Made by a program: the position numbers and the translations under genes. Of a DNA stretch of 47,932 nucleotides, positions 11,166 to 44,941 are shown in pieces (position 1 is the first letter of the stretch; every line of letters starts with the position of its first letter). The stretch is from the IMG/VR virus record IMGVR_UViG_3300025087_000012, positions 1 through 47,932 of that record. One strand, written 5' to 3'. The stretch is from a virus. Below the pieces are notes generated by a model. That model saw only the letters and a program-made list of their open reading frames with translations, had not been told where the DNA came from and made no database searches.

Positions 11166-11981
11166 TCATGCTGCCTTCTTAATTGTCTTCATGCCTTCGG
11201 CCAGTGTCCAAAGTGCTTTGTTGAGTTTAACGTTTTCATCAATTCCTTTGATGGGTCTGGTACGTGTAAAGCGCGGTTTGTTGGTACGTGCCGTGATTGT
11301 GCGCCCTGTGATTCCACCCTTTTCAATCAAGTTCTCCTGAACGCGGTTGAAAGTGTGCCATAGGTCCGGCTTCCTGTCGTCGTATCGGCGAGGATATAGC
11401 AATTGAGCCGGGTCAATAGTTGAGTGATTGTGATCCTTGAGCTGTAATGCGCTTGCAGCAAATACCTGCTGTTCATCGTAGCTCAATTCAATCTCCTCTA
11501 GTTCTTCGACTTTCTTCTGAATTAGTGGCACGTTGTCAATGACCCGATAGCTTGCCTCTAGTACTTCACGCGGGTCAAATCCAGCATGCTTAAATCGAAC
11601 GCTCTCGAATGTACTATCTGCAATCACCAGGCCATTGCTACACACTAATCGGAATAGACCGGCTTGTAGTTGATAGGCGCTTGACCCGTCGTGGCTGTTC
11701 ACTAACACGAGTTCAACCAAGCTGTCCCCTACTTTTAGGGTAGGCTGTGTGCCATCATATTTGCGGAATCTAAGCATATGCTTTTGAAACCCGTGGCGCT
11801 CAATTGTTCTCACTCTCTGTTGTGAGGCCATGACTGGTTGCCATCCCTCGGTGGCCAATTTTTCAACTACGCTGATTGTTGGGAAGAACTTATATTGCTC
11901 GCTTCGTGTACTCGCTTTGTTTTCCGCGAATACGCTAGGCGCAACTAGTTTTAAATGTTCTCTGCTAAGTGGATCTTTCAT
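11166..11981 (-). CDS. DUF932-like phage/plasmid protein
   Basis: A 271-aa protein of the DUF932 kind found in phages and plasmids. Typical parts are visible: the LRFRKYDG segment near residue 70, VELVLVNSHDGSSAYQLQAG near 88-107 and LVCSNGLVIA near 112-121, then a long helical half and a basic end. Members have no settled role and are often expressed early. The ATG overlaps the stop of the gene before it (ATGA). It is the largest gene of this accessory cluster. Confidence 0.8.
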   Translation of the reverse strand: MKDPLSREHLKLVAPSVFAENKASTRSEQYKFFPTISVVEKLATEGWQPVMASQQRVRTIERHGFQKHMLRFRKYDGTQPTLKVGDSLVELVLVNSHDGSSAYQLQAGLFRLVCSNGLVIADSTFESVRFKHAGFDPREVLEASYRVIDNVPLIQKKVEELEEIELSYDEQQVFAASALQLKDHNHSTIDPAQLLYPRRYDDRKPDLWHTFNRVQENLIEKGGITGRTITARTNKPRFTRTRPIKGIDENVKLNKALWTLAEGMKTIKKAA

Positions 11982-12217
11982 GTTTTTACCCCTTGTTTGT
12001 TTGGATATTCAACGCCTTCGTTGCACGCTTCAATAAATTTGCTTCTATTAAAACGCGTGTTGGTTGCTTGTAGTTCATCAGCTAGCTTAAAAACTGTTTT
12101 CTCCCATTGTGCTGCTGATGGGCTTTTCGTTATCATTACTGGCCTTGTTTCTGCCATTATCCTGGCCAGTAGAATATAATGCTGTCTAGTCATCATGCTT
12201 TTTGTTTTGTCTCCCAT
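11978..12217 (-). CDS. Small conserved phage-type protein, 79 aa
   Basis: A 79-aa helical protein. After MTRQHYILLARIMAE comes a pattern ending TNTRFNRSKFIEACNEG that is frequent in small phage proteins of unknown function (NPRFDRxRFxxAC). AAGGA seven bases before the ATG at 12217, sharing a base with the upstream stop (TAATG), sets the start; a longer frame from 12247 is rejected. Confidence 0.8.
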   Translation of the reverse strand: MGDKTKSMMTRQHYILLARIMAETRPVMITKSPSAAQWEKTVFKLADELQATNTRFNRSKFIEACNEGVEYPNKQGVKT

Positions 12218-12783
12218 TACTTTGTCCTTTCCTTCCACGTAAGCCACGTGATAGCCTGCAATTCGAACGGCTGCAGTCCGTTTTTGATAGCCACTTCTTT
12301 GACGGCTTCTTCAATTTCCCGGTACATTTTGTCGGTCAGTGAAGGTCGGTCCTTTTCTTTGAGATATGAACCAAGTGCTACCAGTTGCATATGCACGTCA
12401 ACTGTTACGCGGCTGCTCGATGGGTCATAGATGTTATCAAAGAATGCCGTGATTTTCTTGCCGCTCAGTATTGCAGTGATAGCCGTTTTATCGCTTGTAC
12501 CCATGATTCGAATAGCCTTATGAACGTTAGCTTTGAATGTTGCGCATTTATGGAACTCGTTGCTTCTACAAATCTGTTCTGCATCTAGCAGATTACGTGC
12601 CCATTTGTTGCGCGGTGATAGTGCTGCGATAACTCCGCAAACGGTGATTAGTGGCACGCCAGTTTGTTGGCTGATTTGGAATGCCGCTATACGTGCAGCT
12701 ATATACCATTCTTTGCCTCGTTTCTTATTTTCGATTGATGCCATATCGAACACCGTACGAATGTTTTTTGTGTACTGATTCAT
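12217..12783 (-). CDS. Conserved phage protein, helix-hairpin-helix-like (DUF7178-like)
   Basis: A 188-aa protein. The segment VIAALSPRNKWARNLLDAE (about residues 53-71), GKKITAFFDNI (about 108-118) and SSRVTVDVHMQ (about 122-132) form a pattern known from many phage proteins of unknown task. Its layout recalls HhH-GPD DNA glycosylases, where a helical hairpin is followed by a conserved Asp, so a DNA-repair or DNA-binding role is a reasonable guess. GAGGG upstream supports the ATG at 12783 over a TTG at 12798. It precedes the 79-aa gene with a one-base overlap. Confidence 0.75.
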   Translation of the reverse strand: MNQYTKNIRTVFDMASIENKKRGKEWYIAARIAAFQISQQTGVPLITVCGVIAALSPRNKWARNLLDAEQICRSNEFHKCATFKANVHKAIRIMGTSDKTAITAILSGKKITAFFDNIYDPSSSRVTVDVHMQLVALGSYLKEKDRPSLTDKMYREIEEAVKEVAIKNGLQPFELQAITWLTWKERTK

Positions 12784-12976
12784 TTGTTGTTCCCTCAATT
12801 CTGTTTAATTAGTTATTTGCCAATTAGGATAAGCCATCAACTGTTGCCCTGGAAACGAACCGTTTATAGTCCGTGCAGCCGTTAGTCTGCGATGCCCGGT
12901 CGGCAGGTAGCTCAAGCTGTACTTTTTAGCGTGACGCCTTATTTAGCTATCGGGTATTGCTGGTAGCCATTGCTGG
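12784..12976. other. Intergenic spacer, likely structured leader
   Basis: About 190 bp without a credible gene. It holds the 11-mer ATAGTCCGTGC (12866-12876) shared with 11144-11154, the palindrome GCTAGC and a GCTGGC direct repeat (12972-12985), next to a T-run on the plus strand (12989-12995). It may be the 5' leader of the gene at 12783. I find no complete tRNA or known riboswitch in it. Confidence 0.4.
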
Positions 12977-21683: not shown

Positions 21684-22394
21684 ATGTCACAGACAATTCC
21701 AGGCCCTTTGGTTTTTGACTCAAGGTCTAGTTCTGCGAGCCGTGAAATCTTTGCCGGTCTTCCGGTGGGCCTTGAACTCCTGATGGACTACTCGGTTTTC
21801 TTCGAGGACTTCACTGGGATTGCAATTGACGCCACCAATGACTGGACCAAGATCGTCGACACCTCTGGCACCATTCTGATTAAAGCAGACGCTTTGTTCG
21901 GTATCGCAGAGTTCTCCAACGTGGGAGCTGCGGACAATGCCGGGGCTTCGATTCAGGCCAACGAAACCTTCTCTTTCGTGGCTGGAAAGAAGACCTTGTT
22001 TGAAGCACGGGTATCCGTGCTCGACGCTGACGATGTGGACTTCTTTGTGGGGCTGGTTGAAAACCATGCCACGGACCCAGAAGCGGTTTATGCCGCGACA
22101 GGTGCTGGCTTCCGAATTGCGGAAGGTAGCGCGGTCATTCTGGCAAAGGCAGGTACGGCTCTGGCCTCTTCGGAAAGCACTGGGGTCAGTGCGGTGGACG
22201 ACACGTTCATTGTGCTCTCGATGCTCTACGACGGTACGGACCTTCACTTCTATGTGAACCGCACCAAGAAAGCCACGATTACTGCAGCGAACATCCCCTC
22301 TTCTTTGCTAACGCCGAGTATGGGGTTCATTGCTGGTGCAGCGGCTGCTGATACGATTGCGTGTGACTACATTCTAGTTGCGCAAGAGAGGTAA
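21684..22394 (+). CDS. Jelly-roll-like head accessory protein, copy 1
   Basis: A 236-aa beta-rich protein. The segment LFEARVSVLDADDVDFFVGL with later DDTFIVLSMLYDGTDLHFYV has the pattern of concanavalin/LamG-type jelly-roll domains. It is clearly a paralogue of the next gene: both have VFF[ED]DF near residue 38, FEARV, ENxATxPEAV, DDTF, HFYVNR or RFYVNR and end DYxLxxQER. Position after the capsid gene suggests an outer head fibre or decoration that may bind sugars. GGGAG precedes the ATG. Confidence 0.75.
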   Translation: MSQTIPGPLVFDSRSSSASREIFAGLPVGLELLMDYSVFFEDFTGIAIDATNDWTKIVDTSGTILIKADALFGIAEFSNVGAADNAGASIQANETFSFVAGKKTLFEARVSVLDADDVDFFVGLVENHATDPEAVYAATGAGFRIAEGSAVILAKAGTALASSESTGVSAVDDTFIVLSMLYDGTDLHFYVNRTKKATITAANIPSSLLTPSMGFIAGAAAADTIACDYILVAQER

Positions 22395-22396
22395 AT

Positions 22397-23125
22397 ATGA
22401 AAAGCACGGGACCACACATTAATCCAGATTTAGGGGGGTTTGATAGGCCCCGGGCTTTGTTCTCGAAGATGCCTATCGGGGTGGATCAGCTCTGCGACTA
22501 CGCCGTATTTTTTGATGACTTCGTAACCAGCGTAATCAATGTCACAGACACCTATCTTGGTACGGTTGTAGACACCTCACAAGAGCCTTTACTCGGTACG
22601 GACCTAGAAAACGGGCAGTTGAAACTCCCTTCTGCCGCTACTACGGACAATAACGGCTCATCCATCCAAATGGTTCAGACTTCGTTTTTGGTTAAGTCGG
22701 GTAAAAAACTTTGGTTTGAAGCCAGAGTCAAAGTGTCTGATGCTGACCAGGGTGAGATGTTCATCGGGCTAGCCGAGAACTTCGCAACCAACCCGGAAGC
22801 TGTGATTGTTGACGGTATTGCACGCGTAGGCTTCGAGCTGGTAGATGGACTGGCTACCATCAACACGGTAATTGACGATGATACAACTCCGACTCGAACG
22901 GTACTCAGCTCATCCATGGCGGATGACACTTTTGTGAAACTAGGATTCAGGACTGATGGTGGCCACATTCGGTTCTACGTGAACCGGGCTCTTGTTTCCA
23001 CGCAGGCTATTCCTTCCGCAATCGCAGCAATCACGCTGGGGCCAGCGTTTATGCATATTTCCGGTAATGCTACCGGAACGCATTCGGCACATATGGACTA
23101 TTGGTTAGCAGTTCAGGAGAGATAA
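22397..23125 (+). CDS. Jelly-roll-like head accessory protein, copy 2
   Basis: A 242-aa paralogue of the gene before it, with the same order of segments (FFDDF, LWFEARVKVSDADQGEMFIG, DDTFVKLGF, RFYVNR, DYWLAVQER). The two have drifted far apart in sequence, so the duplication is old. Only two bases separate the genes, and the stop overlaps the next ATG (TAATG). A GAGG site lies before the start. Confidence 0.75.
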   Translation: MKSTGPHINPDLGGFDRPRALFSKMPIGVDQLCDYAVFFDDFVTSVINVTDTYLGTVVDTSQEPLLGTDLENGQLKLPSAATTDNNGSSIQMVQTSFLVKSGKKLWFEARVKVSDADQGEMFIGLAENFATNPEAVIVDGIARVGFELVDGLATINTVIDDDTTPTRTVLSSSMADDTFVKLGFRTDGGHIRFYVNRALVSTQAIPSAIAAITLGPAFMHISGNATGTHSAHMDYWLAVQER

Positions 23126-27778: not shown

Positions 27779-29415
27779 TGCCGAAAGAGGCACACGTAAG
27801 AGAATTTGTAGTGCTGCCTTGGCTGAAAGGGGTGGATACGTGTACCGACGAAGGCATTATGCACTTCACAAAAGGAAAAGAGTTCCTCACTTCGGCTACA
27901 GATATCGTGTACGAACTCGACGGCTCAAAGGTGAAGCGCGAAGGCTTTGCGTACCACGACGACGCGGCAATTACAGGCGCGGAGGACTTAGTAGGCGGGT
28001 TTGACTACTGGGCCAATTTGACTAACACCAAAACACAGAGGCTAGTGGTGTGGGATAACGGTGCTACCAGTCAATGCTGGTTTAAGACTCCCACCGCTGC
28101 AAGTTCATGGACAGAGCTAGCCAAGGATGCCACCGCTACCGCTCCCACGGTCGTGTCCCGTGTGGTGTTCGAAGTTTTCAATGATGACCTGATTATGGCC
28201 GTGACTGACTCAGCCGCAGCGGGTCGAATACCGGTAAAGTGGAATAATCAGGAAGCTGGGAATACTTACAAGCCACTTGGGGGTACGCCTCCAATGCTCA
28301 AGTTCATTCGTACCCACCAGGGCAGACTCTGGGGAGCTGGTGACCCTGTACGTCCTGACAGGCTGCATTTCTCCGGTCCTGGAAACCACGAAGAATGGAA
28401 CGGGGACGGGGATAGCGGGGCTCTCGATATCGACCCCGGCGATGGAGATTCACAGGGTATCACTGCAATCTTCCCTAGCTTCAAGGGCAGACTTATCGTA
28501 GCCAAGGGTACCAGGCTGTACCAGATCGAGGGAACTACCCCGGAAGATTACAAGGTGGTCCCAATTTCCAAGGGCATTGGCTGCGTTTCGCATAATAGCT
28601 GCGTTGCTGTTGACCTTGACGACATTTACTTCATGAGTGACAGAGGTTTTCATTCCCTGGCCGTAACAGAAAAGTACGGAGATTTTGAGGGCGCCTATCT
28701 TTCCGCTGATATTCAAAAAACTTTTAATGCTTGGAGCAAAAGTAAACTGCAATTCAGCCAGGGGGTGTGGATTCCTACCTTGAACTCAGTCATGTGGGCA
28801 ATATCTGAGAATGGTACTACCCTGGATTGTTTCTGGCTGTATGACATCCGGTTCAAAGCTTGGTATAAGTGGACTGGCGTAAATCCTACTTGCCTTTTTC
28901 GCGTTCAGGACGCGGCCACTGGTTTAAAGAAAGCCTACTTCGGAGACAGTGTTGGACGGCTTTCGTACACCCAACGCGGAACGGGCGCGACTGATTACCA
29001 CGATTACGCCTCCACCGTGATTACTCAGAGCGTAACTACTCCGTTTCTTTACCCCGACATGGACCCGCGTGCCGTTAAGGGCTTTAAGAAACTCGGGGTG
29101 TGGGTAAAGATGAACGCAGACGTGGTGCTCACTGCCACGTTCAGACAGGCAGGACGAAACACCACGCAGACCCTTTCATTATCCACTGCATCAGAAGGTA
29201 CGCCGACACTTGACGTTGACTTCATTTTAGGCACCTCAGCACTAGACGCTACGGCGGCACCCAGGATGACACCACTTCAGCTTCCGGTTGATGGCTTCTC
29301 CACGTCGTGTCAGATTACCTTGTCTAATGCTGTACTGAATGAGAAGTGTGCCATATTCGGATTTTGGATTGAGTGGGAACCTGCCGGTGACTCACAAGAA
29401 ACGGTAGGTTACTAA
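27778..29415 (+). CDS. Tail nozzle / DNA-stabilisation protein (P22 gp10 / T7 gp12-like)
   Basis: A 545-aa protein after the adaptor, in the place of the nozzle. Repeated blade-like segments are visible, such as RTHQGRLWGAGDPVRPDRLHF, FKGRLIVAKGTRLYQIEG and DDIYFMSDRGFHSL, which fit the beta-propeller-like fold of these proteins. The C-terminal part (about 415 on) is a beta domain. Six copies form the tail tube that holds in the DNA. Four bases before it end the adaptor gene. Confidence 0.78.
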   Translation: MPKEAHVREFVVLPWLKGVDTCTDEGIMHFTKGKEFLTSATDIVYELDGSKVKREGFAYHDDAAITGAEDLVGGFDYWANLTNTKTQRLVVWDNGATSQCWFKTPTAASSWTELAKDATATAPTVVSRVVFEVFNDDLIMAVTDSAAAGRIPVKWNNQEAGNTYKPLGGTPPMLKFIRTHQGRLWGAGDPVRPDRLHFSGPGNHEEWNGDGDSGALDIDPGDGDSQGITAIFPSFKGRLIVAKGTRLYQIEGTTPEDYKVVPISKGIGCVSHNSCVAVDLDDIYFMSDRGFHSLAVTEKYGDFEGAYLSADIQKTFNAWSKSKLQFSQGVWIPTLNSVMWAISENGTTLDCFWLYDIRFKAWYKWTGVNPTCLFRVQDAATGLKKAYFGDSVGRLSYTQRGTGATDYHDYASTVITQSVTTPFLYPDMDPRAVKGFKKLGVWVKMNADVVLTATFRQAGRNTTQTLSLSTASEGTPTLDVDFILGTSALDATAAPRMTPLQLPVDGFSTSCQITLSNAVLNEKCAIFGFWIEWEPAGDSQETVGY

Positions 29416-30677
29416 TGGGAGTTTTAGGTATAACCAAAACCTACGCGGCTCTGGATGCTCTGATGGAGTCAGACATTGACAACTTCAGAACGGGTCTGCT
29501 TACTTTGTTCAACACCGATGGCTTTGCGGCAGCGAACTTCTCTGCTGCACTTACTTTTACTTCCGACAAGTTTAGCAGCACTGAACTGACCACGACCGAC
29601 GGTACTTACCTAACCTTTGGTACTGACAGTGATGGGTTACTAGGGGTGGCTGCAACTAAGGATTTGATTTTCAATACAGTTACTGCAAGCATTATCCTGA
29701 AGTGTGGCTCTGACAACAAGACGGTGGAAATGAAGTCAACCCAGTTCGACAGCGGGGACATCATACCGGGGGCTGGTGGTGCCGGATACGGCATCTTGTA
29801 TTTGCTCGGGAGGTATCGAAAACCAGTGCTTGAGTACCACGGCGCTACCACTGTACGTCTTGAGCGAAACACAGAGCCAACGGACGCAACTTTGATTGTG
29901 TTCCCGGATTGGGTAATACAGGTTACAGAAGATCTTGGTACTACCCAGAAATATCGTCATGCGGACATTTCTGTTACCGCGAACGGATACGCGGTATCAC
30001 ATACCGGGGCTGCAAGGGGTGGTATACGCGACGGTTTGTCCTTAACCACGAATTCCTGGTACGCGGTTTACGCGGCCCGCGTCAGGTACGGTACGAACGC
30101 AGGTAACAACTTCATCATGGTTTTTGACAGTATCCTCCCTACCCAGGCTAACGAGGCTACCCTGGACGGCAGATATGGTGAAGGTCAGTGGGTTTACTTG
30201 GGGATGGTACGTTACGGCTTCGGTGCTGATGGCACCAGCAGTAATTTAATCGGGTTCAAGTATAGCAACAAGGGCTGGTGCTACTTCAATACAAACGACG
30301 GGGGCGCAACGCTTGGTGGTCTGACCCTCGCACAGTCCACACTAGACGCAAATGACGCGCCGCTCTATAATATAGCCGACGGAATGGCGGGAAATGTAAT
30401 CCCGGTGGATGCTGTTTCAATGGGCCAGTTCAACGTAAGCAGGGCGCGAGTATCAAATTGGTACATTCGGGATACCGCCGATAGCACGATATGGCGCGGG
30501 GGCTGGCAGGAAGAGGAATCAGCAGTACCGCATGGACATCAGGTGGAAATACCGGTTCAGGCTGGCATTGATTTTTGTCAGACCAGGATAAGCACAGGTG
30601 CGGTGGATAAAAGGGTTGTGCTTACAGGATTTTGCGATAGGTTTGTAGGAGTACGGAGGCACGGTAAAGGTATATGA
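29415..30677 (+). CDS. Tail fibre protein, copy 1 of 3
   Basis: A 420-aa protein and the first of three tandem paralogues. N-terminus: LGITKTYAALDALMESDIDN, a docking helix pattern shared by all three. Middle: RYRKPVLEYHGATTVRLERN and later NSWYAVYAARVRYGTNAGNN with QWVYLGMVRYGFGADGT, conserved across the set. The C-terminal 130 residues differ between copies. This is the architecture of fibre or spike proteins, with a constant base and varying tip. It starts at the stop of the nozzle gene. Confidence 0.75.
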   Translation: MGVLGITKTYAALDALMESDIDNFRTGLLTLFNTDGFAAANFSAALTFTSDKFSSTELTTTDGTYLTFGTDSDGLLGVAATKDLIFNTVTASIILKCGSDNKTVEMKSTQFDSGDIIPGAGGAGYGILYLLGRYRKPVLEYHGATTVRLERNTEPTDATLIVFPDWVIQVTEDLGTTQKYRHADISVTANGYAVSHTGAARGGIRDGLSLTTNSWYAVYAARVRYGTNAGNNFIMVFDSILPTQANEATLDGRYGEGQWVYLGMVRYGFGADGTSSNLIGFKYSNKGWCYFNTNDGGATLGGLTLAQSTLDANDAPLYNIADGMAGNVIPVDAVSMGQFNVSRARVSNWYIRDTADSTIWRGGWQEEESAVPHGHQVEIPVQAGIDFCQTRISTGAVDKRVVLTGFCDRFVGVRRHGKGI

Positions 30678-31903
30678 GTACCCTCAATATCACTCGTAGT
30701 CTAGTTTCCGCCACGAATCCTACTGAAGACCAGTTCGATACGATTCGTGATGAACTCCTGGCCTACTTCAATGGCACAGAGCTGGAAGCTACGAACATCG
30801 CTGATGGCGGGATGTTATATACCAGTCTGACTTTGGCTGCGGATGATGACCCGCTACTCTGGGAGGACAGTGATTCACGCCTTGAGTATGTGTCTGCAAC
30901 CAATAACTTTCTTATCCGCTGCAATACCGGTGAGATTGTGTTTCAAAACAAGATCGGCACTACCAGTGCGGAATCTCTCAGAATGGAAACCACCGGGGCC
31001 TTAACCATCGGGGCTGGTGGGATACCAAAGATAGGCCAAGGTAACAGTTCTACGGCCATGGACCTGGTGCACGCGCTGGCACGCTACCGCAAGCCGCGTC
31101 TGGAATACACTGACGATGACATTATTACGATAGAAAACAACACAGGTACCAGCGGACAAACCGTGTTGTTTCAGCGGGACCAGGTTACCGCCGTAGTTGA
31201 TCGTACACTCAGCCTTGCGGTCGAGGCCAACGGTTACGCCGGGGCTCACACGGGGGCAGCCGTGAGCGGAAGAAAAGTGGCCCTGGCCCGCGCAACTAAT
31301 ACCTGGTACTACATTTACGGCGTGCAAGTTCAAGGCGGTGACGACATTGGCGGAAATAGCATCATGGTGGCGGATACCACAAGCCCAGTGCAAGCAAATT
31401 GTGCTGGGCTCGACACGGCCTACGGCGCCGGTAAGTGGGTTTACCTTGGGATAATCAGGAACGGCTACAATGATGGCACCAACACCAACATAATTGTGCC
31501 TTTCCAGTACGACGAATATGGGGAGCTACGGTTCACCAAAACTACCTCGCAGGCTAGTGACGGTATGGGTATTGTTTTAGCTTCCGCGACTGCCTCTACT
31601 GATCTAGATTACGCGATGGCATTTGGCACGGGCGCCGCTGAAATTCCTGTTGTGGCACTACGCGGCACACTTATGGGCTACCGCTCCGGGTATGGTTTTG
31701 AAATGTATTACATAGATGATTCAACTGCTGAGGTGCATGCGCTGAATACGAACTACCAGCATACTAGTGGCGAGTCACAGCTTACTGCAACAGCGGTGTT
31801 GGATATTCCATTTATGAACAGTTACACTATAAGACTGAAAATCGGCTCTACTTCGACCACAAATAAGATACGACTAGCAGCACTGGTGGATCATTATGTC
31901 TGA
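30674..31903 (+). CDS. Tail fibre protein, copy 2 of 3
   Basis: A 409-aa paralogue of the fibre before it. It keeps the N-terminal docking pattern (LNITRSLVSATNPTEDQFDT), the ARYRKPRLEYTDDDI segment, NTWYYIYGVQVQGGDDIGGN and KWVYLGIIRNGYNDGTNT. It has its own C-terminal tip (HALNTNYQHTSGESQLTATA) and the same final LDHYV-like ending (VDHYV). It overlaps copy 1 by four bases (ATGA) and copy 3 by eight. Confidence 0.75.
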   Translation: MSTLNITRSLVSATNPTEDQFDTIRDELLAYFNGTELEATNIADGGMLYTSLTLAADDDPLLWEDSDSRLEYVSATNNFLIRCNTGEIVFQNKIGTTSAESLRMETTGALTIGAGGIPKIGQGNSSTAMDLVHALARYRKPRLEYTDDDIITIENNTGTSGQTVLFQRDQVTAVVDRTLSLAVEANGYAGAHTGAAVSGRKVALARATNTWYYIYGVQVQGGDDIGGNSIMVADTTSPVQANCAGLDTAYGAGKWVYLGIIRNGYNDGTNTNIIVPFQYDEYGELRFTKTTSQASDGMGIVLASATASTDLDYAMAFGTGAAEIPVVALRGTLMGYRSGYGFEMYYIDDSTAEVHALNTNYQHTSGESQLTATAVLDIPFMNSYTIRLKIGSTSTTNKIRLAALVDHYV

Positions 31904-33152
31904 TTTAAGCCTCACCAAGAATTACGCTGACACTGAACTGCTTTATAAAGCAGACATTGACGACATGCTAACGGAGCTGGAAGCCAAGACTAATGGCATG
32001 ATTGACTCTGATAACGTGGCATCTGGCTGGGCCACCCTTGGGCAGCTCACCATCGACAAGGATTTAACGCTCACGATGGGTACCACCGATTCCTCTTCAG
32101 TGGAACTTGATTCAGTCACACTGGATTTCACCTTCTCAAACACATACTCCACTGGAAACACAATCTTTAAGGTGGCCAGTGCTGAGGTTGCCCGCATTGA
32201 CGGCACCTCCAATAACCTAGAAATTCAGGACGACGTATATTTCAAGGATCGTAACACCACCTACAGTCTGTTTCGGCTACTGGGTACCTACAGAAAACCG
32301 GTTTTGGTGTATATTGACGGTGACTCCATTGACATGGAGAATAACACAGAGACTGCAAACCAGTCCTTGGTAGTGTTTCCGTCTGGACCAGTGGCGGTTA
32401 CGGAAGACACCGCAGCAGCACACAAGTACCGCAGGCTAGAAACCGGAGCTACTGCCAACGGGTACGGCTCGACGCATACAGGGGCCGCAGACTCTGGGCT
32501 CAGAGTCGATGTAACACTTGCGGCCAATACCTGGTACTTCATCTATGCCGTCAGGGTCCGGTATGGTGACAATGCTGGAAACAATTTCATCATGGTGATG
32601 GACACTACAGAGCCTATCTCATCTAATGAAACCACCCTGGATAGCAGATACGGGTCAGGAGAGTGGGTATACCTCGGTACGGTCAGAAGAGGTTTTGGGG
32701 ATACCGCTACGACCACCTTGGTATCCTGGCAGCAGGACCACCAGGGCTGGACTTACTTCGTGGATAGAGGTACAGCGGACGACTTCTTTGGCATCAGAGT
32801 TGCCTCGGAAACCATATCCAGCACTACCTATTCCAACTTGTTTACCATAGCAGCAGGTACCGATGGTGAGAGTATTCCTTCAATCTTTTCGGCACTTAAG
32901 CTCGATATTCGTGCAATTGCAGACGGTGACAGCGATATCGGTGCTAATTTCGAGTTCAGAACTGCCGCCGGTAACTCCCTGCATAACCTACCCTCTATCG
33001 GAAATGAGCAGATTGCTGATGGAGCACAAGGGTTTATCATAAAAGTACCCAACACCGTAGGGGCAGCACTGGGGGCAAAAAGGTTAAGTACTTCAGGGGA
33101 CGATTATACTGTAAAGCTTTTCGTTTCAGGATTTTTAGATCATTATGTGTGA
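31896..33152 (+). CDS. Tail fibre protein, copy 3 of 3
   Basis: A 418-aa paralogue: LSLTKNYADTELLYKADIDD at the N-terminus, TYRKPVLVYIDGDSIDMENN, NTWYFIYAVRVRYGDNAGNN and EWVYLGTVRRGFGDTATT in the middle, and FLDHYV at the end. It is closer to copy 1 than to copy 2 in the middle part (compare VRYG.NAGNNFIMV in both). The tip from about 300 is again different. Confidence 0.75.
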   Translation: MSDLSLTKNYADTELLYKADIDDMLTELEAKTNGMIDSDNVASGWATLGQLTIDKDLTLTMGTTDSSSVELDSVTLDFTFSNTYSTGNTIFKVASAEVARIDGTSNNLEIQDDVYFKDRNTTYSLFRLLGTYRKPVLVYIDGDSIDMENNTETANQSLVVFPSGPVAVTEDTAAAHKYRRLETGATANGYGSTHTGAADSGLRVDVTLAANTWYFIYAVRVRYGDNAGNNFIMVMDTTEPISSNETTLDSRYGSGEWVYLGTVRRGFGDTATTTLVSWQQDHQGWTYFVDRGTADDFFGIRVASETISSTTYSNLFTIAAGTDGESIPSIFSALKLDIRAIADGDSDIGANFEFRTAAGNSLHNLPSIGNEQIADGAQGFIIKVPNTVGAALGAKRLSTSGDDYTVKLFVSGFLDHYV

Positions 33153-35579: not shown

Positions 35580-36683
35580 ATGGAATACAGGAGAGACAGA
35601 GACAATACCAGACCTGAAGGAACCACCGGCAGACCACCAGGTGAAAACCCGTCGTCCCCGCCTCGTACGCACCAACAATACGCGCCTTCATGGGCTCCGC
35701 CACGCGTACCGGCACCTTCGTGGAGAACCCCTCCCCCGGCTTTTCAAAGGCCGGGAGGCTCAGGGCACGGCCAAAGACCAGTCCATACCCGTAACTGGGA
35801 GGGCGAGGGCGATACCCGCGTTAGGATGAGCACGCGCAACGATTATGACCGGAACAGAGGAAGATATGACGATGAGCGTTACGCTCCAGGCGCGGTGCGT
35901 TTGATCGCAAAAGCAGGAAATCAGCCCTTCCAGATTCTAGGGCTCAAAAACCGCACCGATTACCAACCAAATTCGGTGGTAATCAAAGGTAAGGATGGCA
36001 ACTGGTACCGTGCAGTTCCCTACGGCAGCAACAGCATGGGCGGTAGACAGCTTGACAGACTAAAAGGAAGGCTTGACTATTATGACCGTGATGGGGGCTC
36101 CCGATGGGGAGGACACGGTGGTGGACATTGGGGTGGAGGCTGGGGTGGGCGTAGCCACTGGGGTCCGCCGTCTTGGGCTCCAGCATGGGGATTCAGAAAT
36201 CATGGGGGATGGCGGGATGGTGGACATTCTCGTGGCGGTGGCTGGGGCAGTAATTATTCACATGGTGGTAGCCGCCGGGGCGGGCACGGCGGTGGTAGTA
36301 GGTTCTCCAACGTCCACTACCTCGGGATGTCAAGTCCGGGAGCGCCACGCAATGTTTGGTATAACGGCAGAACCATGTACTATAGTGGAGAGGGCGGTGG
36401 AACCTACCTCGTTACACCAGGCTCTTATGGGTATATTTCTCCATTTAGACATGGTGGACACGGCAGAAGGGGCCGGGGTCATGGCGGTAGGGACAGAGGA
36501 CACGACCGCGAACGGCGCGGCGGGCATGACCGGGACCGAAGAGATAATGATCGTGGAAGCAGCAGCCGAAGAAGCGACGGCTGGAAAAGGTATCAGTCCG
36601 GTGAGCGTGATTTTGACCGATCACGGGAACGCGACAGCAGGCACGGTAGTTGGTTCAAGGATTGGTGGAGAAGGTGGCACTAA
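35580..36683 (+). CDS. Gly/Arg/His/Trp-rich low-complexity protein, 367 aa
   Basis: A highly unusual protein with few ordinary domains. Residues 1-100 are Pro/Arg/Asp-rich; about 105-165 hold a possible small fold (VRLIAKAGNQPFQILGL, WYRAVPYGS). From about 175 on come RGG- and GGH-like stretches (GGHGGGHWGGGWGGRSHW, GGSRRGGHGGG), a small YLVTPGSYGYISPF core, then a strongly basic Arg/Asp/His tail (RGHDRERRGGHDRDRRDND). Composition of this kind predicts disorder and RNA or DNA binding. The start is one base after the previous stop. Reading frames in the other phases here are shadows. Confidence 0.75.
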   Translation: MEYRRDRDNTRPEGTTGRPPGENPSSPPRTHQQYAPSWAPPRVPAPSWRTPPPAFQRPGGSGHGQRPVHTRNWEGEGDTRVRMSTRNDYDRNRGRYDDERYAPGAVRLIAKAGNQPFQILGLKNRTDYQPNSVVIKGKDGNWYRAVPYGSNSMGGRQLDRLKGRLDYYDRDGGSRWGGHGGGHWGGGWGGRSHWGPPSWAPAWGFRNHGGWRDGGHSRGGGWGSNYSHGGSRRGGHGGGSRFSNVHYLGMSSPGAPRNVWYNGRTMYYSGEGGGTYLVTPGSYGYISPFRHGGHGRRGRGHGGRDRGHDRERRGGHDRDRRDNDRGSSSRRSDGWKRYQSGERDFDRSRERDSRHGSWFKDWWRRWH

Positions 36684-37673
36684 ATGAGTTATCTTTCGAG
36701 GTGGGCAAATAGCTATCACGGTAGACGACGGGGCCACGACAAGGATTCTTGGTGGAACCAGGGCAGGCATCGTCAAGGAAGACGGCGAGAACCAACTGCG
36801 TCCAGAACCTACAATGGGCATCCTTCAAACCCCTTCCCGCAGGTTCAGTCCAGTAAGCCTTCGTCAACATCGTCCAGAACGTCAAGTCGTCAACAGCCTG
36901 CACCGGCTCCGAACCCTCGTTGGGCTAACCTAGAAAACAACCAACCGCTCCCGCAGGGGTGGCAAAGGCCGTATGCGCAACCTACCTCCATCAGTTCCTT
37001 AATTACTGGGCTTTTGTACCAGTCCAGGCAAGACCCTATGGATGTATGGAACAATTTCTTCGGAAATAAAAGATCCAGTAATCCTACTTATTCCGGTGGT
37101 ACCACCGGTAAAAACCCATGGGGTTATGATAAAGGGGCTTCCAGCGGGTCCACTGGGGCATCCCAGGGAAACCTATCTCAGGCCGCGATGCAGTCCCTAC
37201 AGCTTGCGGATGCCTACTTCAGTCCTAAGCGGCTGGAACTGGCCTACGAACTCGGGGACATGGAAACCGATATGCGAAGGCTTTCGGTCAATCTTGGTAG
37301 GCAGGTGGATGACCCTATTCTCCAGGCCAAACTATACAAGGAAGCCATGCGATCAATCAGAACACTTGATTCTGAACAGAACTCCTTTGCCATCCAAATG
37401 GTGGAACAACGCCGGAAAGAAGAGCTGCAAAACTCCCAGTTCTATGACCAACTAGCGCTCGAAGAGCGCAAGACCACAATGCAGGATGATCAGTTCTATT
37501 CCAACCTATCTCTCCAGCGCGACCAGGCTGAGGACCAGAATAAGCAGTTCTATGCTAATCTGTCAGTGCAGCAACAGCAGGTTAGGAACCAGAATAACCA
37601 GTTCTATGCACAGCTGAATAAAGGTACCGGTACAACCTCTAGCAGCGGGTACGGGTACACAACGGGGTGGTAA
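36684..37673 (+). CDS. Virion-region protein with 18-residue QFY repeats, 329 aa
   Basis: The N-terminal 100 residues are basic and polar (YHGRRRGHDKDSWWNQGRHR). A helical part runs from about 165 (SQAAMQSLQLADAYFSPKRL), then a coiled-coil tail contains QFY at residues 252, 270, 288 and 306, each exactly 18 residues apart (QFYDQLALEERK, QFYSNLSLQRDQ, QFYANLSVQQQQ, QFYAQLNKG). A Gly/Ser/Tyr end follows. Such a regular coil suggests a filament or internal core assembly. It starts in the last codons region of the preceding gene with no gap. Confidence 0.72.
   Translation: MSYLSRWANSYHGRRRGHDKDSWWNQGRHRQGRRREPTASRTYNGHPSNPFPQVQSSKPSSTSSRTSSRQQPAPAPNPRWANLENNQPLPQGWQRPYAQPTSISSLITGLLYQSRQDPMDVWNNFFGNKRSSNPTYSGGTTGKNPWGYDKGASSGSTGASQGNLSQAAMQSLQLADAYFSPKRLELAYELGDMETDMRRLSVNLGRQVDDPILQAKLYKEAMRSIRTLDSEQNSFAIQMVEQRRKEELQNSQFYDQLALEERKTTMQDDQFYSNLSLQRDQAEDQNKQFYANLSVQQQQVRNQNNQFYAQLNKGTGTTSSSGYGYTTGW
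37437..37625 (+). repeat. 54-bp coding repeats (18-residue QFY unit), four starts
   Basis: Repeat starts at 37437, 37491, 37545 and 37599, exactly 54 bases apart, all with CAGTTCTAT at the front; the fourth is partial. Between the fronts the bases and residues differ while Gln/Asn/Asp richness is kept, so the unit is old and held by selection. Confidence 0.85.
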
Positions 37674-39410: not shown

Positions 39411-41465
39411 ATGATTTACTTCAAGACGCCGGAAGGACAAAGTGGGGCACTGGATATAGTACAGATGCTGCGTGCAGATGGGCTCATTCCAACTGGCGTT
39501 CAGGACGGAAATGTAATGTACACCTCAGAAGACGGGGTGGAAGAGGGCATGTTCTCGGTGGCCGACTGGGCCATGCAAACTGGGCATACAATCAGTAAGA
39601 TTGACGGGTTTAACTCTCCTGTTACTGCACTTCCGCTTCCTCCAACTGGCATGAACTCACTGGATCAGTCTGTGTGGTTCATGGATGGTGGCAACATGCA
39701 GGCCCTTCAGGAAATGTTCCCCCAGGCACAGAGGCTTTCCGATGGCAGAGCAGTGGTGCTAGACAAGGACGGGCTCTGGAAAACCATGTGGTCAGACAAC
39801 TGGTCCCCTCCGGCCAAGTTCCCCACCTACCAGGATTTGGCAGACCGGGGGCAGGCCCTGGATGTCAAAGAGGGCATGAAGAGCGCCGGAATAGTTTTCT
39901 TGTTTGGGCTTTCAGGACAAGACTTGGATATCAGCAAGACCGGTGGAGCTACTCCTAAATCCATAACCAAGTGCCTGCGAGCAGTAAGCAATAATGCCCC
40001 CACTGAGAACAAAATGATGATCGGTAAGATCATGCACCAGACCACCGGGATTGATGAGTGGAAGTTCATGAACGCGCTCTACAGCCCAGAAGAGGTTGGT
40101 GCATGGCTCGACCAGACCCAAAAGAGCAGCACATTTCAGTTCCGCATGAAACAAGTTTCCGTAGCCGACATGGTAATTAAGTCCATGCACCAAATTGCTG
40201 TAAGACAATTCATTGACGCCATGAATGCGCTCTCAAAAATGCCTGAAGCTAAACACATGATTATCAACCTCAAAGAGGTAACCGACGAATTCATTACGAT
40301 GCTCGACAGGCTTGACGTTATTCGGGACATGGGCAAAATTACTGGTTTAGAGGAATGGAAATCCATAGCGGAAGATAAGGCCGTGGACCCCTCCAAGCTC
40401 CCTCCGATGCCTGCCTTTGTACCAAAACTCGTTAAGCTTCTGAAGTGGATCATGCCGGTATCCCAGAACAACGTGCTTGCATTCGCCAAAGGCCAGCGGG
40501 GCTTCAAGGCGATCATGTCACTGATGGTGATGGTGGACAACTGCCTCTATTCACTTTCCGATGTGCCAGATTCCACAGCTAAACAGAAAATGTTTATGGC
40601 CCTGAAGAACATCCAAACACGAATGGAAAACAAACTGGCTATTTACTTCCATCCCGAAAAGAACCCCGATGGAATGAAGAGCAATCTTTTCCATGAAGCC
40701 AAAAAGAATTACGGCGACAAGCGGGAAGTAGTGTATGCGATCGTGCAGAGCTCTAAAGAAACATGGGCTCAACTCATTACAGAAACCCTACGTAAGGAAC
40801 CCAACCTCGAAGCATTCTATGACACACTGCCCAAAGATTTCGCTGGGCTGCTCAAGACCTTCCTGGCAATGGACGTGGCATATGACATGCAACCTTGGAT
40901 TGACCCGGAGTATCGCAAGCGCATCAATGACCCCCTGGCCATGATGTCTGACATCTATGGGGCGCCTCCCCCAGAATTCGGCTACCTGGCAGATAACAGC
41001 CCCAGGGCCGCGCTGAATATCATTGAAACCTTAACCCAGACTGCGGCAATGTTTAACACCATGGGGGACCGCCAACGGCTACACGTAGTTAGGTCCCCTC
41101 TCCTGTTCGCCAATATGATGAACATGCTCCAAACTGCTGCGGTGCAGCGCGAGGTGGGTACGGTAGAAACCTTGACTCGCATGGGCATGATGGCCAACAA
41201 TGACCCGTACACCTCGGTGGACCCGCGCAGGATATGGGAAGACCCGGTGGCCGTGGCGGAAGATCAAAAGGCACAAATGGCCGCATATATGGAACAAATG
41301 GCATCAGAAAAGGCTGCAGAAGACGTGGCAAAACTGGACCAGAACGCACAAAGTGCTATGATGGCAGAGCAACAGGGCGCTCCGGCTGCTGCTGCACCAG
41401 CGCCACAAAGCGCAAATTCGGCAGCCCCTAACGGGGCTCCGCCAATGATGGCAGCAGGAGGATAG
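39411..41465 (+). CDS. Large virion-region protein, 684 aa
   Basis: Not recognised. The protein is largely helical (ALSKMPEAKHMIINLKEVTD, VPKLVKLLKWIMPVSQNNVL and on), with an N-terminal alpha/beta part of about 140 residues and a C-terminal Ala/Gln/Pro tail (QQGAPAAAAPAPQSANSAAP) of the same kind as the neighbours. Its end MMAAGG is like the LAAGG end of the protein at 33966. Long helical proteins at this place in podoviruses are usually internal core or ejection proteins. Confidence 0.68.
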   Translation: MIYFKTPEGQSGALDIVQMLRADGLIPTGVQDGNVMYTSEDGVEEGMFSVADWAMQTGHTISKIDGFNSPVTALPLPPTGMNSLDQSVWFMDGGNMQALQEMFPQAQRLSDGRAVVLDKDGLWKTMWSDNWSPPAKFPTYQDLADRGQALDVKEGMKSAGIVFLFGLSGQDLDISKTGGATPKSITKCLRAVSNNAPTENKMMIGKIMHQTTGIDEWKFMNALYSPEEVGAWLDQTQKSSTFQFRMKQVSVADMVIKSMHQIAVRQFIDAMNALSKMPEAKHMIINLKEVTDEFITMLDRLDVIRDMGKITGLEEWKSIAEDKAVDPSKLPPMPAFVPKLVKLLKWIMPVSQNNVLAFAKGQRGFKAIMSLMVMVDNCLYSLSDVPDSTAKQKMFMALKNIQTRMENKLAIYFHPEKNPDGMKSNLFHEAKKNYGDKREVVYAIVQSSKETWAQLITETLRKEPNLEAFYDTLPKDFAGLLKTFLAMDVAYDMQPWIDPEYRKRINDPLAMMSDIYGAPPPEFGYLADNSPRAALNIIETLTQTAAMFNTMGDRQRLHVVRSPLLFANMMNMLQTAAVQREVGTVETLTRMGMMANNDPYTSVDPRRIWEDPVAVAEDQKAQMAAYMEQMASEKAAEDVAKLDQNAQSAMMAEQQGAPAAAAPAPQSANSAAPNGAPPMMAAGG

Positions 41466-41467
41466 AA

Positions 41468-41647
41468 ATGCTCACGATTAATGAAAAAGCAAAATTCTCG
41501 CTGAGTATCGTAATTTCAATCGTGGCTCTGGCTTTTAGCGTCGGATTAGCGTGGGCCAAGGTAAATCAGATTGCAGAGTTGGAAAAAGTGATTAGAAGTG
41601 TAGACACACGACTCTCCCGAATTGAAGGCAAATTGGGTGTACATTAA
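41468..41647 (+). CDS. Small membrane protein with coiled coil, 59 aa
   Basis: A 59-aa frame with GGAGG six bases before its ATG and TAATG coupling to the next gene. It has a short charged start, one membrane helix at about residues 10-30 (FSLSIVISIVALAFSVGLAW) and a coiled coil to the end (VNQIAELEKVIRSVDTRLSR). The form is that of an inner-membrane protein with a soluble coil and would suit a lysis accessory, an inner spanin-like partner or an ejection adaptor. No further homology is claimed. Confidence 0.8.
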   Translation: MLTINEKAKFSLSIVISIVALAFSVGLAWAKVNQIAELEKVIRSVDTRLSRIEGKLGVH

Positions 41648-43089
41648 TGGGTGCAGAAAGTGATCCAAAATTTTTAGCCGCGATGGCCAACGTGAAGTCC
41701 TCCCCGTATTACACGGGAGGGGCACCTCTGGCCACACAACAGGCCCAACAGGTGGCGTACGCTAGTAATCCTGCTTACTATAACAACACGGCTGCACCGG
41801 CTCAGCCCATCATAAATAACCCGGCAGCACTGGATGCTATCAAAAACGCCAAACCAGGAGTGGATTTGGCTCCGATTCTCAAGAACCTTGGGCTATCTCC
41901 TTTAGCTATCAAGTCAGTCCTGAATGACCCCACCAGGAAAGCTGCGGGCACAGATGCCCCGGCTAATGGCGACCCAAAAGACTCGCCGTTAATTGACGAA
42001 AAAGAATTAGGCAACCGTACCGACGTAAACAAGGACGGCAAGGTAGACAACGCTGACGGTATGCCGCGTACCTCTCCTGAACTATTGGCTATGCTGAACC
42101 AAGGTCAAATTGACCAGGCCGCGCTACCTAAAGTTCTAACTATGTTCGAATGCACGGGCTGCAACGAAGCCCAAAAATTAGAGCTGGGATTCTACCTTCA
42201 GCGCTTCATCGTCGACGGAATGATTAGGGGCGAGGACGTAATAAAAAACATACAAGACCAGGGCGGTTTAAAATTCAACATGGACTACACACCAGGAAGA
42301 GGCATTGGCGGTATGGCCGATACCGGGGGTGGAGTAAATGTATCCCTTTACGGCTGGGGTGATTATTCCGATGGCTGGAAATTCGATGACTTCTACCACG
42401 AGGTGGGTCACAACCTGCTAGAGCGCGGACATAACTACGACCCCAATTCCGTAATGTACGGCCCGGGAGACGTAGGTCAGTTGAAGGGTCCTGAATGGCT
42501 TTCTGGGGTCTACGACTATGCAATGGGCGAGCTGTACAACCCGGATAATTGGGCTAAAACGCAAGCACCACCAGGTGTGGCCCCAAAAGTAGATCCTAAT
42601 GCATACCCTCAGACCACTCCCGGTACCCCGCTACCTCCGGCTGGCCCTGTTGACCCTAATCCAGTCGGTCAAGGCGCGCCTCAAACCGCCGCTCCGCCCG
42701 TCGCAGCTCCCGCTCCAAATGTTGCACCGATCGGGCCGACTTCCTTGATTGGTCCTGCAGGTCCCACTGTTGGAGTAACTGGCTCGCCCTACTACCAGGG
42801 GCCACCAACCAGAATGGCATCCAGTAATCAGGCTCAGCAGGCCGTGGCTCAGCAATTTGTTGAGTTTGGTGAGAATGCCCCGCGCGGCTCAGAGTCTCTT
42901 GAGTCTGCGATCGCCGAGATGGAGGGCGGATCATTTTCGCCTCCAGGTTCGGCTGGATCGTCACGGGCTCCCCGTGGGGCGGGAGCAAATATACCGAATC
43001 CGTTTCGGGATGAGCTTGGCCGTATGCTTCAACAGGGTGCGCCGATGTTGAGAGGCTTAGGGGGAGCGTTAACCAAATGGCGTAAGTGA
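41647..43089 (+). CDS. Virion-region protein with EF-hand and metzincin-like motifs, 480 aa
   Basis: The last gene of the structural operon. Residues 126-137 read DVNKDGKVDNAD, an EF-hand calcium loop. Residues 251-262 hold HEVGHNLLERGH, an HExxH zinc motif with a further His, and PNSVMYG (267-272) has the form of a Met-turn. Together they suggest a metzincin-type zinc protease, although the third His is one residue later than in the classic HExxHxxGxxH. The C-terminal 180 residues are Pro/Ala-rich linker and a helical end. It could cut virion proteins or host-surface proteins. The 3' end overlaps a minus-strand gene by 61 bp. Confidence 0.78.
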   Translation: MGAESDPKFLAAMANVKSSPYYTGGAPLATQQAQQVAYASNPAYYNNTAAPAQPIINNPAALDAIKNAKPGVDLAPILKNLGLSPLAIKSVLNDPTRKAAGTDAPANGDPKDSPLIDEKELGNRTDVNKDGKVDNADGMPRTSPELLAMLNQGQIDQAALPKVLTMFECTGCNEAQKLELGFYLQRFIVDGMIRGEDVIKNIQDQGGLKFNMDYTPGRGIGGMADTGGGVNVSLYGWGDYSDGWKFDDFYHEVGHNLLERGHNYDPNSVMYGPGDVGQLKGPEWLSGVYDYAMGELYNPDNWAKTQAPPGVAPKVDPNAYPQTTPGTPLPPAGPVDPNPVGQGAPQTAAPPVAAPAPNVAPIGPTSLIGPAGPTVGVTGSPYYQGPPTRMASSNQAQQAVAQQFVEFGENAPRGSESLESAIAEMEGGSFSPPGSAGSSRAPRGAGANIPNPFRDELGRMLQQGAPMLRGLGGALTKWRK

Positions 43090-43340
43090 TCAGCTTGTTC
43101 ATGATTTTTTACCTCTTTAGACAATCGTTTCTGCAATTGGTATACCCGCTGCTTCTCTCTAATGATTTCCCGATTAGCGTAGTACCTAACCTTGTTGTAG
43201 CTTGACCAGCACAAAGGACAGGTGGCATTCATCCACCTACTACCCTTTTCGTCGCGAAATATCTTATCCCCTCGACTATTTAAGCCACTTAATATTGCTA
43301 CGCCTTGCACCCTGCAACGGCTGCATTGCTTTTTGTCCAT
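43029..43340 (-). CDS. Cys-pair zinc protein, 103 aa (HNH-like neighbourhood)
   Basis: Residues CSRC (about 6-9) and CPLC (about 41-44) with a Trp and His-rich surround predict a zinc knuckle pair; the central part (KVRYYANREIIREKQRVYQL) is a charged helix. Small Cys-pair proteins with this layout are common in phages and some belong to recombination endonuclease or HNH-like groups, but I see no catalytic His pair here. It is the last gene of the leftward operon, after the tRNAs, and overlaps the metzincin-like gene tail to tail. Confidence 0.72.
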   Translation of the reverse strand: MDKKQCSRCRVQGVAILSGLNSRGDKIFRDEKGSRWMNATCPLCWSSYNKVRYYANREIIREKQRVYQLQKRLSKEVKNHEQADHLRHLVNAPPKPLNIGAPC

Positions 43341-44090: not shown

Positions 44091-44299
44091 TCCCTCCCCA
44101 GGGTATATATGGTATTCCGCGTTTCCGCAGTACCTTTATTAAAGTCGATCTTAATTAAGGATGATGTTCTTAACGAGGTGCATCCAAGTTTGGGGTGATC
44201 AGGTGTATGCCCGATTAGTACAAATGTTTCCCCGGCACAGATAAGCTTCCAGTCATCGATGCGGGCCTTCTGTTTCTTAGGCTTAAATAACTTAAGCAT
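44081..44299 (-). CDS. Hypothetical protein, 72 aa
   Basis: A small protein, basic at its start (MLKLFKPKKQKARIDDW), then beta-rich (LICAGETFVLIGHTPDHPKL). Not recognised. The start at 44299 has GAGGTG and lies 8 bp inside the GroES-like gene end. A longer frame up to 44485 lies inside the GroES-like gene and is rejected. Confidence 0.75.
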   Translation of the reverse strand: MLKLFKPKKQKARIDDWKLICAGETFVLIGHTPDHPKLGCTSLRTSSLIKIDFNKGTAETRNTIYTLGRECN

Positions 44300-44735
44300 T
44301 AAGCACCTCGAACGCTTTCTTGTAGTCCTGGAACCACATCGGAATAAGAGTATCCCTGACACGACCGATTGAGTAGGGCTCATAACCTGCAATATGTCCA
44401 AAAGCCCCATACCAATACGTCGAACCGGGCAAAAGTATGACATCTCCCACCTTTGAATCACACGGAAAGGTATTACCCTGCTCATCCAACTGACCGGGAC
44501 CAGTCATTAGCACAATGCCGAACTCAGTCATGGTGTCTTCTATGGTATCCCGGAACGTCTTGGCACCTTGCAGGATGATACCGGATTTGGTTTTCATCTC
44601 GATAGCCGGGAGGCGCTCCACCAGCAGGTGGTCCCCCTTTAGTTCCATAATTCCTGGAAATTCCAAAGTAAGCCTTCGAAATTTCTTGAGGTACTTGCTT
44701 GACCCTACTGCATCCCCAGTAAAAAACTCACTCAT
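44292..44735 (-). CDS. GroES-like co-chaperonin (Cpn10 fold)
   Basis: A 147-aa protein. From residue 31 the pattern LKGDHLLVERLPAIEMKTKSGIIL matches the first strand and mobile-loop entry of GroES (DRVLVKR.E.EEKTxGGI). Later GIVLMTGPG and KVGDVILLPGSTYWY match the core strands GxVVAVGxG and VGDxVxF. It could bind GroEL and fold the capsid protein, as T4 gp31 does. The N-terminal 25 residues and the long C-terminal tail are extra. The ATG at 44735 overlaps the preceding stop (ATGA) with GGAGA upstream. Confidence 0.68.
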   Translation of the reverse strand: MSEFFTGDAVGSSKYLKKFRRLTLEFPGIMELKGDHLLVERLPAIEMKTKSGIILQGAKTFRDTIEDTMTEFGIVLMTGPGQLDEQGNTFPCDSKVGDVILLPGSTYWYGAFGHIAGYEPYSIGRVRDTLIPMWFQDYKKAFEVLNA

Positions 44736-44941
44736 TCGCCAATTCTCCATCTCTCGATTATGTTATCCAACGCGTTCATCTGCGACTCTGTTACATACCC
44801 AACTTTTTGAATTCGGTCGTACACACTCTCAACAAACTCTGTATCAAAGTCAGCATCCGTATCTGAAGCCCATTCTAAGATATTTTCGATCTTTGTTTCG
44901 GCTTCATGAAAATCCAGCAAGTTCGGCTTAATCACTCCCAC
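44732..44941 (-). CDS. Small acidic helical protein, 69 aa
   Basis: A 69-aa protein starting with GTG at 44941 (GGTGG upstream). It is acidic and helical (NLLDFHEAETKIENILEWAS, MNALDNIIERWRIGE). The function is unknown. It is coupled to the GroES-like gene by ATGA and follows the two-helix membrane gene with only two bases between them. Confidence 0.72.
   Translation of the reverse strand: MGVIKPNLLDFHEAETKIENILEWASDTDADFDTEFVESVYDRIQKVGYVTESQMNALDNIIERWRIGE

What the first reader, a model, noticed from the sequence alone, without database searches (positions are those of the whole stretch)
41647..43089. Possible virion-borne metzincin-type protease with an EF-hand
HEVGHNLLERGH plus PNSVMYG match the zinc site and Met-turn of metzincins except for one extra residue before the third His, and DVNKDGKVDNAD is a calcium loop. 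A calcium-set zinc protease at the end of a structural operon is unusual; it could clear surface proteins, trigger ejection, or act inside the host.
Basis: partly seen in the sequence, partly recalled or inferred. Interest (0 to 1): 0.65.

Follow-up and report, generated by a model that had tools for sequence, protein, structure and literature searches.

The report
Metzincin-like protease in phage structural operon
The last gene of this phage's structural gene block encodes a probable zinc-dependent protein-cutting enzyme of an uncharacterised family that also occurs as small lipoproteins in many bacteria; it may be carried in the virus particle or used at lysis, which no sequence data here can decide.

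Summary
The 480-aa ORF at 41647-43089 contains H251-E-x-x-H255-(x6)-H262, a Met-turn-like S-V-M270 and one EF-hand/dockerin-type loop. The extra residue before the third His is not a defect. It recurs in the only annotated phage relative (MW202601, same gene position, labelled "neutrophil collagenase") and in over 100 bacterial and viral-contig proteins, mostly 150-200 aa lipoproteins. Their shared signature is F...W...HExGHxxLxRxH...S[ILV]M...Y..EL. Profile-profile comparison ties the window protein to that family (98.6%, E=7.5e-16).

AlphaFold gives a small zincin-type domain with the helix ending where the metzincin glycine sits. Sequence searches rank metzincins (matrilysin, snake-venom adamalysins) first, but none is significant, and Foldseek is split between minigluzincins and ADAMs. 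I therefore call it a metzincin-like zincin with an expanded zinc motif, not a proven metzincin.

"Calcium-set" is not supported: the loop is outside the domain and absent from the relative. "Virion-borne" is plausible (end of a colinear podovirus-type structural operon, no signal peptide, disordered tails like its neighbours) but unproven. A coupled small membrane gene directly upstream makes a lysis role the main rival.

The parts
41647..43089 (+). ORF for the 480-aa metzincin-like zincin protein (P0001); no signal peptide or lipobox apparent
   Evidence: relative at same place in MW202601
41647..41976 (+). N-terminal region, residues 1-110, Ala/Pro/Asn-rich, probably disordered
   Evidence: composition; missing in the relative
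42022..42057 (+). single EF-hand/dockerin-type calcium loop DVNKDGKVDNAD (residues 126-137), outside the conserved domain
   Evidence: not conserved in P0002
42151..42162 (+). CxxC pair (C169, C172), the only cysteines of the protein, just before helix A
42094..42540 (+). conserved zincin domain, residues 150-298
42166..42225 (+). predicted helix A (residues 174-193) with family-invariant F187
42355..42357 (+). W237, conserved in at least 90% of the family
42397..42432 (+). zinc site H251-E-V-G-H255-N-L-L-E-R-G-H262 on the active-site helix; E252 the predicted catalytic base
42448..42456 (+). Met-turn-like S268-V-M270
42490..42537 (+). predicted C-terminal helix with family-invariant E295-L296 (Y..EL)
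42547..43086 (+). C-terminal Pro/Ala/Gly-rich tail, residues 301-480, probably disordered
   Evidence: a differing low-complexity tail in the relative
41468..41647 (+). 59-aa membrane plus coiled-coil protein with AGGAGG ribosome site; its stop overlaps the protease start (TAATG), suggesting translational coupling
39411..41465 (+). 684-aa putative internal virion (ejection-type) protein, 48% identical to its MW202601 counterpart

Best explanation
The gene encodes a zinc-dependent endopeptidase of an uncharacterised metzincin-like family. H251, H255 and H262 hold the zinc, E252 activates the water, and S-V-M270 forms the floor below the metal. Flexible Pro/Ala-rich arms flank the domain. It is made late as the last product of the virion structural operon of a podovirus-type phage. 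Most likely it is packaged with the internal (ejection-type) virion proteins encoded just upstream and cuts host envelope proteins during DNA entry, as an enzymatic ejection module comparable in role to the transglycosylase domain of T7 gp16. Shown by sequence: motif, family membership, gene position, colinearity with MW202601. Supported by model: zincin-type fold. Inferred only: activity, packaging, substrate and timing.
For: Homologue with the same expanded motif at the same locus. Family profile match 98.6%, E=7.5e-16 over 123 columns, window pair excluded from the family profile (similar). Conserved positions outside the search pattern: F187, W237, Y292, E295, L296. Profile-retrieved members that were not selected by the DNA pattern keep His3, Met and Glu. 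Model: helix A, active-site helix ending at L257, Met loop, C helix; family model pLDDT 87.6. Metzincins rank first by sequence. 24 structural genes from terminase to protease are colinear with MW202601. Enzymatic ejection-protein precedent: T7 gp16 transglycosylase (PMC8954989). No export signal, and tails of the same composition as the neighbours' tails.
Against: No curated family reaches its cut-off for this protein. With the 12-residue motif masked, the family HMM gives no match, so most of the signal is the motif. Foldseek on the window model gives no significant hit. There are no proteomic data. A coupled small membrane gene directly upstream fits a lysis cassette as well. An M15 endolysin-like gene exists elsewhere, so the gene is not needed as the only lytic enzyme, but that does not place it in the virion.
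Confidence: 0.4

Rival explanations
1. Late lysis or egress factor: the small membrane protein encoded immediately upstream lets the signal-less protease reach the envelope (holin-endolysin style), where it cuts envelope proteins to help lysis or prevent re-adsorption.
For: TAATG coupling to a 59-aa membrane/coiled-coil protein with a strong ribosome site. MW202601 has a 79-aa coiled-coil/TM protein and a 36-aa lipoprotein-like ORF in the same place. Published precedent for a phage-derived metzincin that aids lysis: Listeria Mtz/Tim (PMC8235301).
Against: The membrane proteins match no holin or spanin family. A separate endolysin-like M15 gene is present. The tails resemble those of structural neighbours.
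Confidence: 0.3
2. Intracellular processing enzyme that acts on host or virion proteins during late infection without being packaged.
For: Late operon position; cytoplasmic by default for lack of a signal peptide.
Against: Much less conserved (30%) than MCP (84%) or portal (72%), which is unlike a core maturation protease. Family relatives are exported lipoproteins.
Confidence: 0.15
3. The domain is a gluzincin-like enzyme in which the invariant Glu of the C-terminal helix (E295), not H262, is the third zinc ligand. (This concerns the chemistry and can be true together with any of the roles above.)
For: Glu invariant in the family. Foldseek places minigluzincins selecase and abylysin first (prob 0.99/0.97).
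Against: His3 and the Met are equally invariant, also in profile hits not selected for them. The active-site helix ends where metzincin helices end. Sequence hits are metzincins; the window pair scores 18% against M48 and 78-82% against M10/Reprolysin_3. The invariant Arg260-Glu295 could instead be a salt bridge (inference).
Confidence: 0.15
4. Inactive zincin remnant or chance motif in a structural protein.
For: Weak scores against every curated library.
Against: All catalytic positions kept in two diverged phages and in the whole family; 0.02 chance occurrences expected.
Confidence: 0.07

Closest known systems
MW202601/MW202604 'neutrophil collagenase' (UOF79068), uncultured Caudoviricetes, Manatee Spring
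   Same: same genomic place, same HExxHx6H spacing, IM after the third His, shared helix A and EL end; neighbouring structural genes colinear
   Different: 30% identity in the domain only; no EF loop, no long N-terminal region, shorter tail; its label is a deposited annotation, not a tested function
Uncharacterised bacterial and viral-contig lipoprotein zincins with HELGHCxLxRxHD...SIM...YYxxELF (Saprospiraceae and other Bacteroidota, Bdellovibrionota)
   Same: full signature F, W, HExGHxxLxRxH, S[ILV]M, Y..EL; profile match E=7.5e-16
   Different: they mostly carry a lipobox and are 150-200 aa; the window protein has no lipobox and has long disordered arms
MEROPS clan MA(M) metzincins (matrixins M10, adamalysins M12B)
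   Same: HExxH, third His, Met 8 residues after it as in matrilysin; best sequence-ranked hits
   Different: one extra residue; Leu in place of the conserved Gly; smaller sheet in the model; no significant fold match
Minigluzincins (selecase, abylysin)
   Same: best Foldseek hits of the family model; minimal domain size
   Different: third ligand Glu in gluzincins; here a His3-Met pair is invariant
Pfam PF18894 PhageMetallopep
   Same: 15 of 35 family members match, over the HExxH helix (best E=5.8e-7)
   Different: the window domain itself does not match; only about 35 of 134 profile positions align
Listeria Mtz (LMRG_00713) phage-origin metzincin (PMC8235301)
   Same: metzincin-type protease of phage origin linked to phage lysis
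   Different: Sec-secreted, classical HExxHxxGxxH/D motif, paired with a TIMP-like lipoprotein, not in a structural operon

Membership tests
Zincins (HExxH metallopeptidases) | HExxH on an active-site helix below a small beta sheet, with a downstream third ligand | tested here: met
   motif; predicted helix carries H251-H255; best fold hits of the family model are zincins
Metzincins, clan MA(M) | HExxHxxGxxH/D consensus | tested here: not met
   HExxHxxLxRxH: one residue more, Leu for Gly, in the whole family
Metzincins, clan MA(M) | Met-turn after the third His | tested here: inconclusive
   Met invariant at matching spacing in sequence; position below the zinc not measurable without coordinates
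Metzincins, clan MA(M) | significant fold or profile match to known metzincins | tested here: inconclusive
   Foldseek window model none, family model TACE prob 0.82 E=0.042; hmmsearch BaP1 E=0.018; hhalign 78-82% over 25-28 columns
Gluzincins / minigluzincins (M48-like) | third zinc ligand Glu on a downstream helix | tested here: inconclusive
   invariant E295 exists but His3 is also invariant; ligand identity needs a structure
HExxHxxLxRxH family (outlined here) | F...W...HExGHxxLxRxH...S[ILV]M...Y..EL signature and profile match | tested here: met
HExxHxxLxRxH family (outlined here) | N-terminal lipobox, as in the 27 viral-contig members (a common trait, not necessarily a defining one) | tested here: not met
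   absent from the window protein and from P0002 by inspection; present in A5
EF-hand calcium-regulated metzincin | conserved calcium site affecting the catalytic domain | tested here: not met
   loop outside the domain and not in the relative; 1 of 116 family domains
Podovirus internal virion / ejection proteins | present in purified virions and ejected | not testable with these tools
   only gene position and composition

The most novel reading that the evidence does not exclude
A phage carries a protease of a previously undescribed metzincin-like family inside its virion and ejects it into the cell envelope to cut protein barriers during DNA entry. The family's expanded HExxHx6H site would be a new zinc-binding variant of the metzincin fold, shared with widespread uncharacterised bacterial lipoproteins.
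Probability: 0.3. Interest if true: 0.72.

Novelty: new variant of a known kind. Interest (0 to 1): 0.5.

Why it matters
Known virion enzymes that help phages enter cells mostly cut sugars or peptidoglycan; a packaged protein-cutting metalloenzyme would widen that list. The same analysis also outlines a sizeable uncharacterised family with a consistent one-residue expansion of the metzincin zinc motif, found in Bacteroidota and in Bdellovibrionota, so that one solved structure would settle whether it is a new metzincin family or a bridge to the gluzincins.

Tried and rejected
Single-protein and two-sequence scans of viral contigs for relatives found none. A stricter DNA pattern with a preceding Phe-Tyr found none in viral contigs or in genomes. 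Portal relatives in viral contigs are fragments that do not reach the protease locus, so presence there cannot be judged. The motif-masked HMM test failed. Archaeal and cyanobacterial M50/S2P-like proteins hit the DNA pattern but are another family and were dropped by the S-x-M/E-L filter. An apparent internal repeat (SPYY...QAQQ) between the N- and C-terminal arms is not significant. A 148-aa antisense ORF at 42656-43102 was considered and left aside: no counterpart in MW202601. NCBIfam acetylglutamate-kinase hits are far below cut-off and rejected. Capsid-maturation protease rejected as primary reading because of low conservation against MCP and portal. No coordinates of the models are available, so zinc-ligand geometry could not be measured.

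Full report
What is there. The ORF at 41647-43089 on the + strand is real and encodes 480 aa. It is the last gene of a rightward block that runs from the large terminase (14899) and portal (16452) through the major capsid protein (20754), tail proteins and a set of large, low-complexity proteins. The zinc motif is H251-E252-V-G-H255-N-L-L-E-R-G-H262, followed by S268-V-M270. The calcium-type loop is at residues 126-137. A zinc-site-plus-Met pattern of this kind is expected 0.02 times in the window's ORFs after residue shuffling and occurs once.

Relatives at the same place. The only annotated phage relatives are MW202601 and MW202604, uncultured Caudoviricetes from Manatee Spring, where the product is called 'neutrophil collagenase'. 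Identity is 30% over residues 150-297 (E=5e-14 for the pair alone). The structural genes from terminase to this gene are colinear, with identities of 84% (MCP), 72% (portal), 48% (upstream 684-aa protein) and 30% (this domain). The relative's site is HEMGHAALARPHDDDGIM: the same extra residue, and a Met six residues after the third His.

A family with the same signature. Aligned with the window protein, they share positions that the pattern did not select: F187, W237, Y292, E295 and L296 (window numbering). hhalign of the two phage proteins against the family without them gives 98.6%, E=7.5e-16 over 123 columns. The caution is that with the 12-residue motif masked the family HMM no longer finds the phage proteins, so the motif carries most of the signal. 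Profile searches of Bacteroidota and Bdellovibrionota genomes, which did not require the third His, again return strong members with the third His, the Met and the Glu. Further out they reach a protein with the classical HExxHxxGxxH spacing and an EIM turn (L181).

Fold. AlphaFold on the window domain with 27 relatives gives pLDDT 74, pTM 0.72: helix A, short strands, the active-site helix ending at residue 257, a Met loop and a C-terminal helix. A family lipoprotein gives pLDDT 87.6. Foldseek finds no significant PDB match for the window model, but its top five hits are zincins. The family model matches selecase and abylysin (prob 0.99 and 0.97), BlaR1, SPRTN, TACE (0.82) and ADAM-8, all with E above 0.01. 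In BFVD the best match is an uncharacterised Caudovirales protein (prob 1.00, TM 0.50), followed by several viral zincins.

Metzincin or not. By sequence the nearest solved proteins are metzincins: matrilysin for the window protein (E=0.33) and snake-venom adamalysins for the family profile (BaP1 E=0.018), each aligned with a one-residue gap inside the motif. The phage pair scores 78% and 82% against bacterial M10 and Reprolysin_3 alignments and 18% and 5% against M48 and SprT, over short stretches; the family alone is ambiguous (79, 41, 69 and 78%). The invariant Glu of the last helix leaves a gluzincin arrangement open. The consensus test for clan MA(M) fails literally, so I describe it as metzincin-like, and file it only in the family outlined here.

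Calcium. The loop lies before the conserved domain, in the part of the model with pLDDT of 60 or less. It is missing in the relative, and such loops occur in 1 of 116 family domains. The portal of both phages also has a DINNDGLNE stretch. Calcium control is therefore unsupported; the loop may be a local stabiliser.

Role. No export signal or lipobox is apparent, unlike in the bacterial relatives. The long Ala/Pro/Gly-rich arms resemble the tails of the neighbouring structural proteins. [quoted passage not shown] This makes virion packaging the leading inference. The main rival is egress: a 59-aa membrane/coiled-coil protein with a strong ribosome site overlaps the protease start by one base (TAATG), its counterparts in MW202601 are a small membrane protein and a 36-aa lipoprotein-like ORF, and a phage-derived metzincin in Listeria promotes lysis (PMC8235301). 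The window has an M15 endolysin-like gene elsewhere. Nothing available here decides between these.

Verdict. A real, conserved, probably active zinc peptidase domain (my estimate 0.85 for the chemistry), a new variant of a known kind, in an unusual genomic place; packaging about 0.5, role at entry lower.

Noticed in passing
41468-41647 (+): 59-aa ORF with a membrane segment and coiled coil, AGGAGG ribosome site, overlapping the protease start by one base; no PHROG match above noise.
   Followed up: partly
4971-5423 (-): Peptidase_M15_3 / endolysin-like gene in the leftward operon that also holds the DNA polymerase (Pfam E=7.5e-9; PHROG endolysin E=6e-17).
   Followed up: partly
44292-44750 (-): GroES/cpn10-like gene, 65% identical in MW202601, in the convergent operon next to the protease gene.
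   Followed up: no
29415-33152 (+): Three tandem paralogous proteins of about 410 aa (30-38% identical), also three in MW202601: probable tail fibre or appendage paralogues.
   Followed up: no
21684-23125 (+): Two adjacent paralogous proteins (37% identical) just after the major capsid protein.
   Followed up: no
42151-42162 (+): CxxC, the only cysteines of the protease protein, directly before helix A; the MW202601 relative has a CxxC at residues 9-12 instead.
   Followed up: no
35580-37673 (+): Two unusual proteins in the structural block: one Gly/His/Arg-rich (RGG/GGH repeats), one with four QFYxxL repeats.
   Followed up: no
L002:9559-11043: MW202601 protein in the internal-protein region carries an EF-like DTDGDGDFDDDD stretch.
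   Followed up: no
11166-12798 (-): DUF932 and DUF7178 proteins, both strong Pfam matches without known function, in neighbouring positions.
   Followed up: no
L046-L164 (genome loci): Many Bacteroidota and Bdellovibrionota genomes carry one or more HELGHCxLxRxHD...SIM...YYxxELF proteins without a dedicated Pfam or NCBIfam family.
   Followed up: partly
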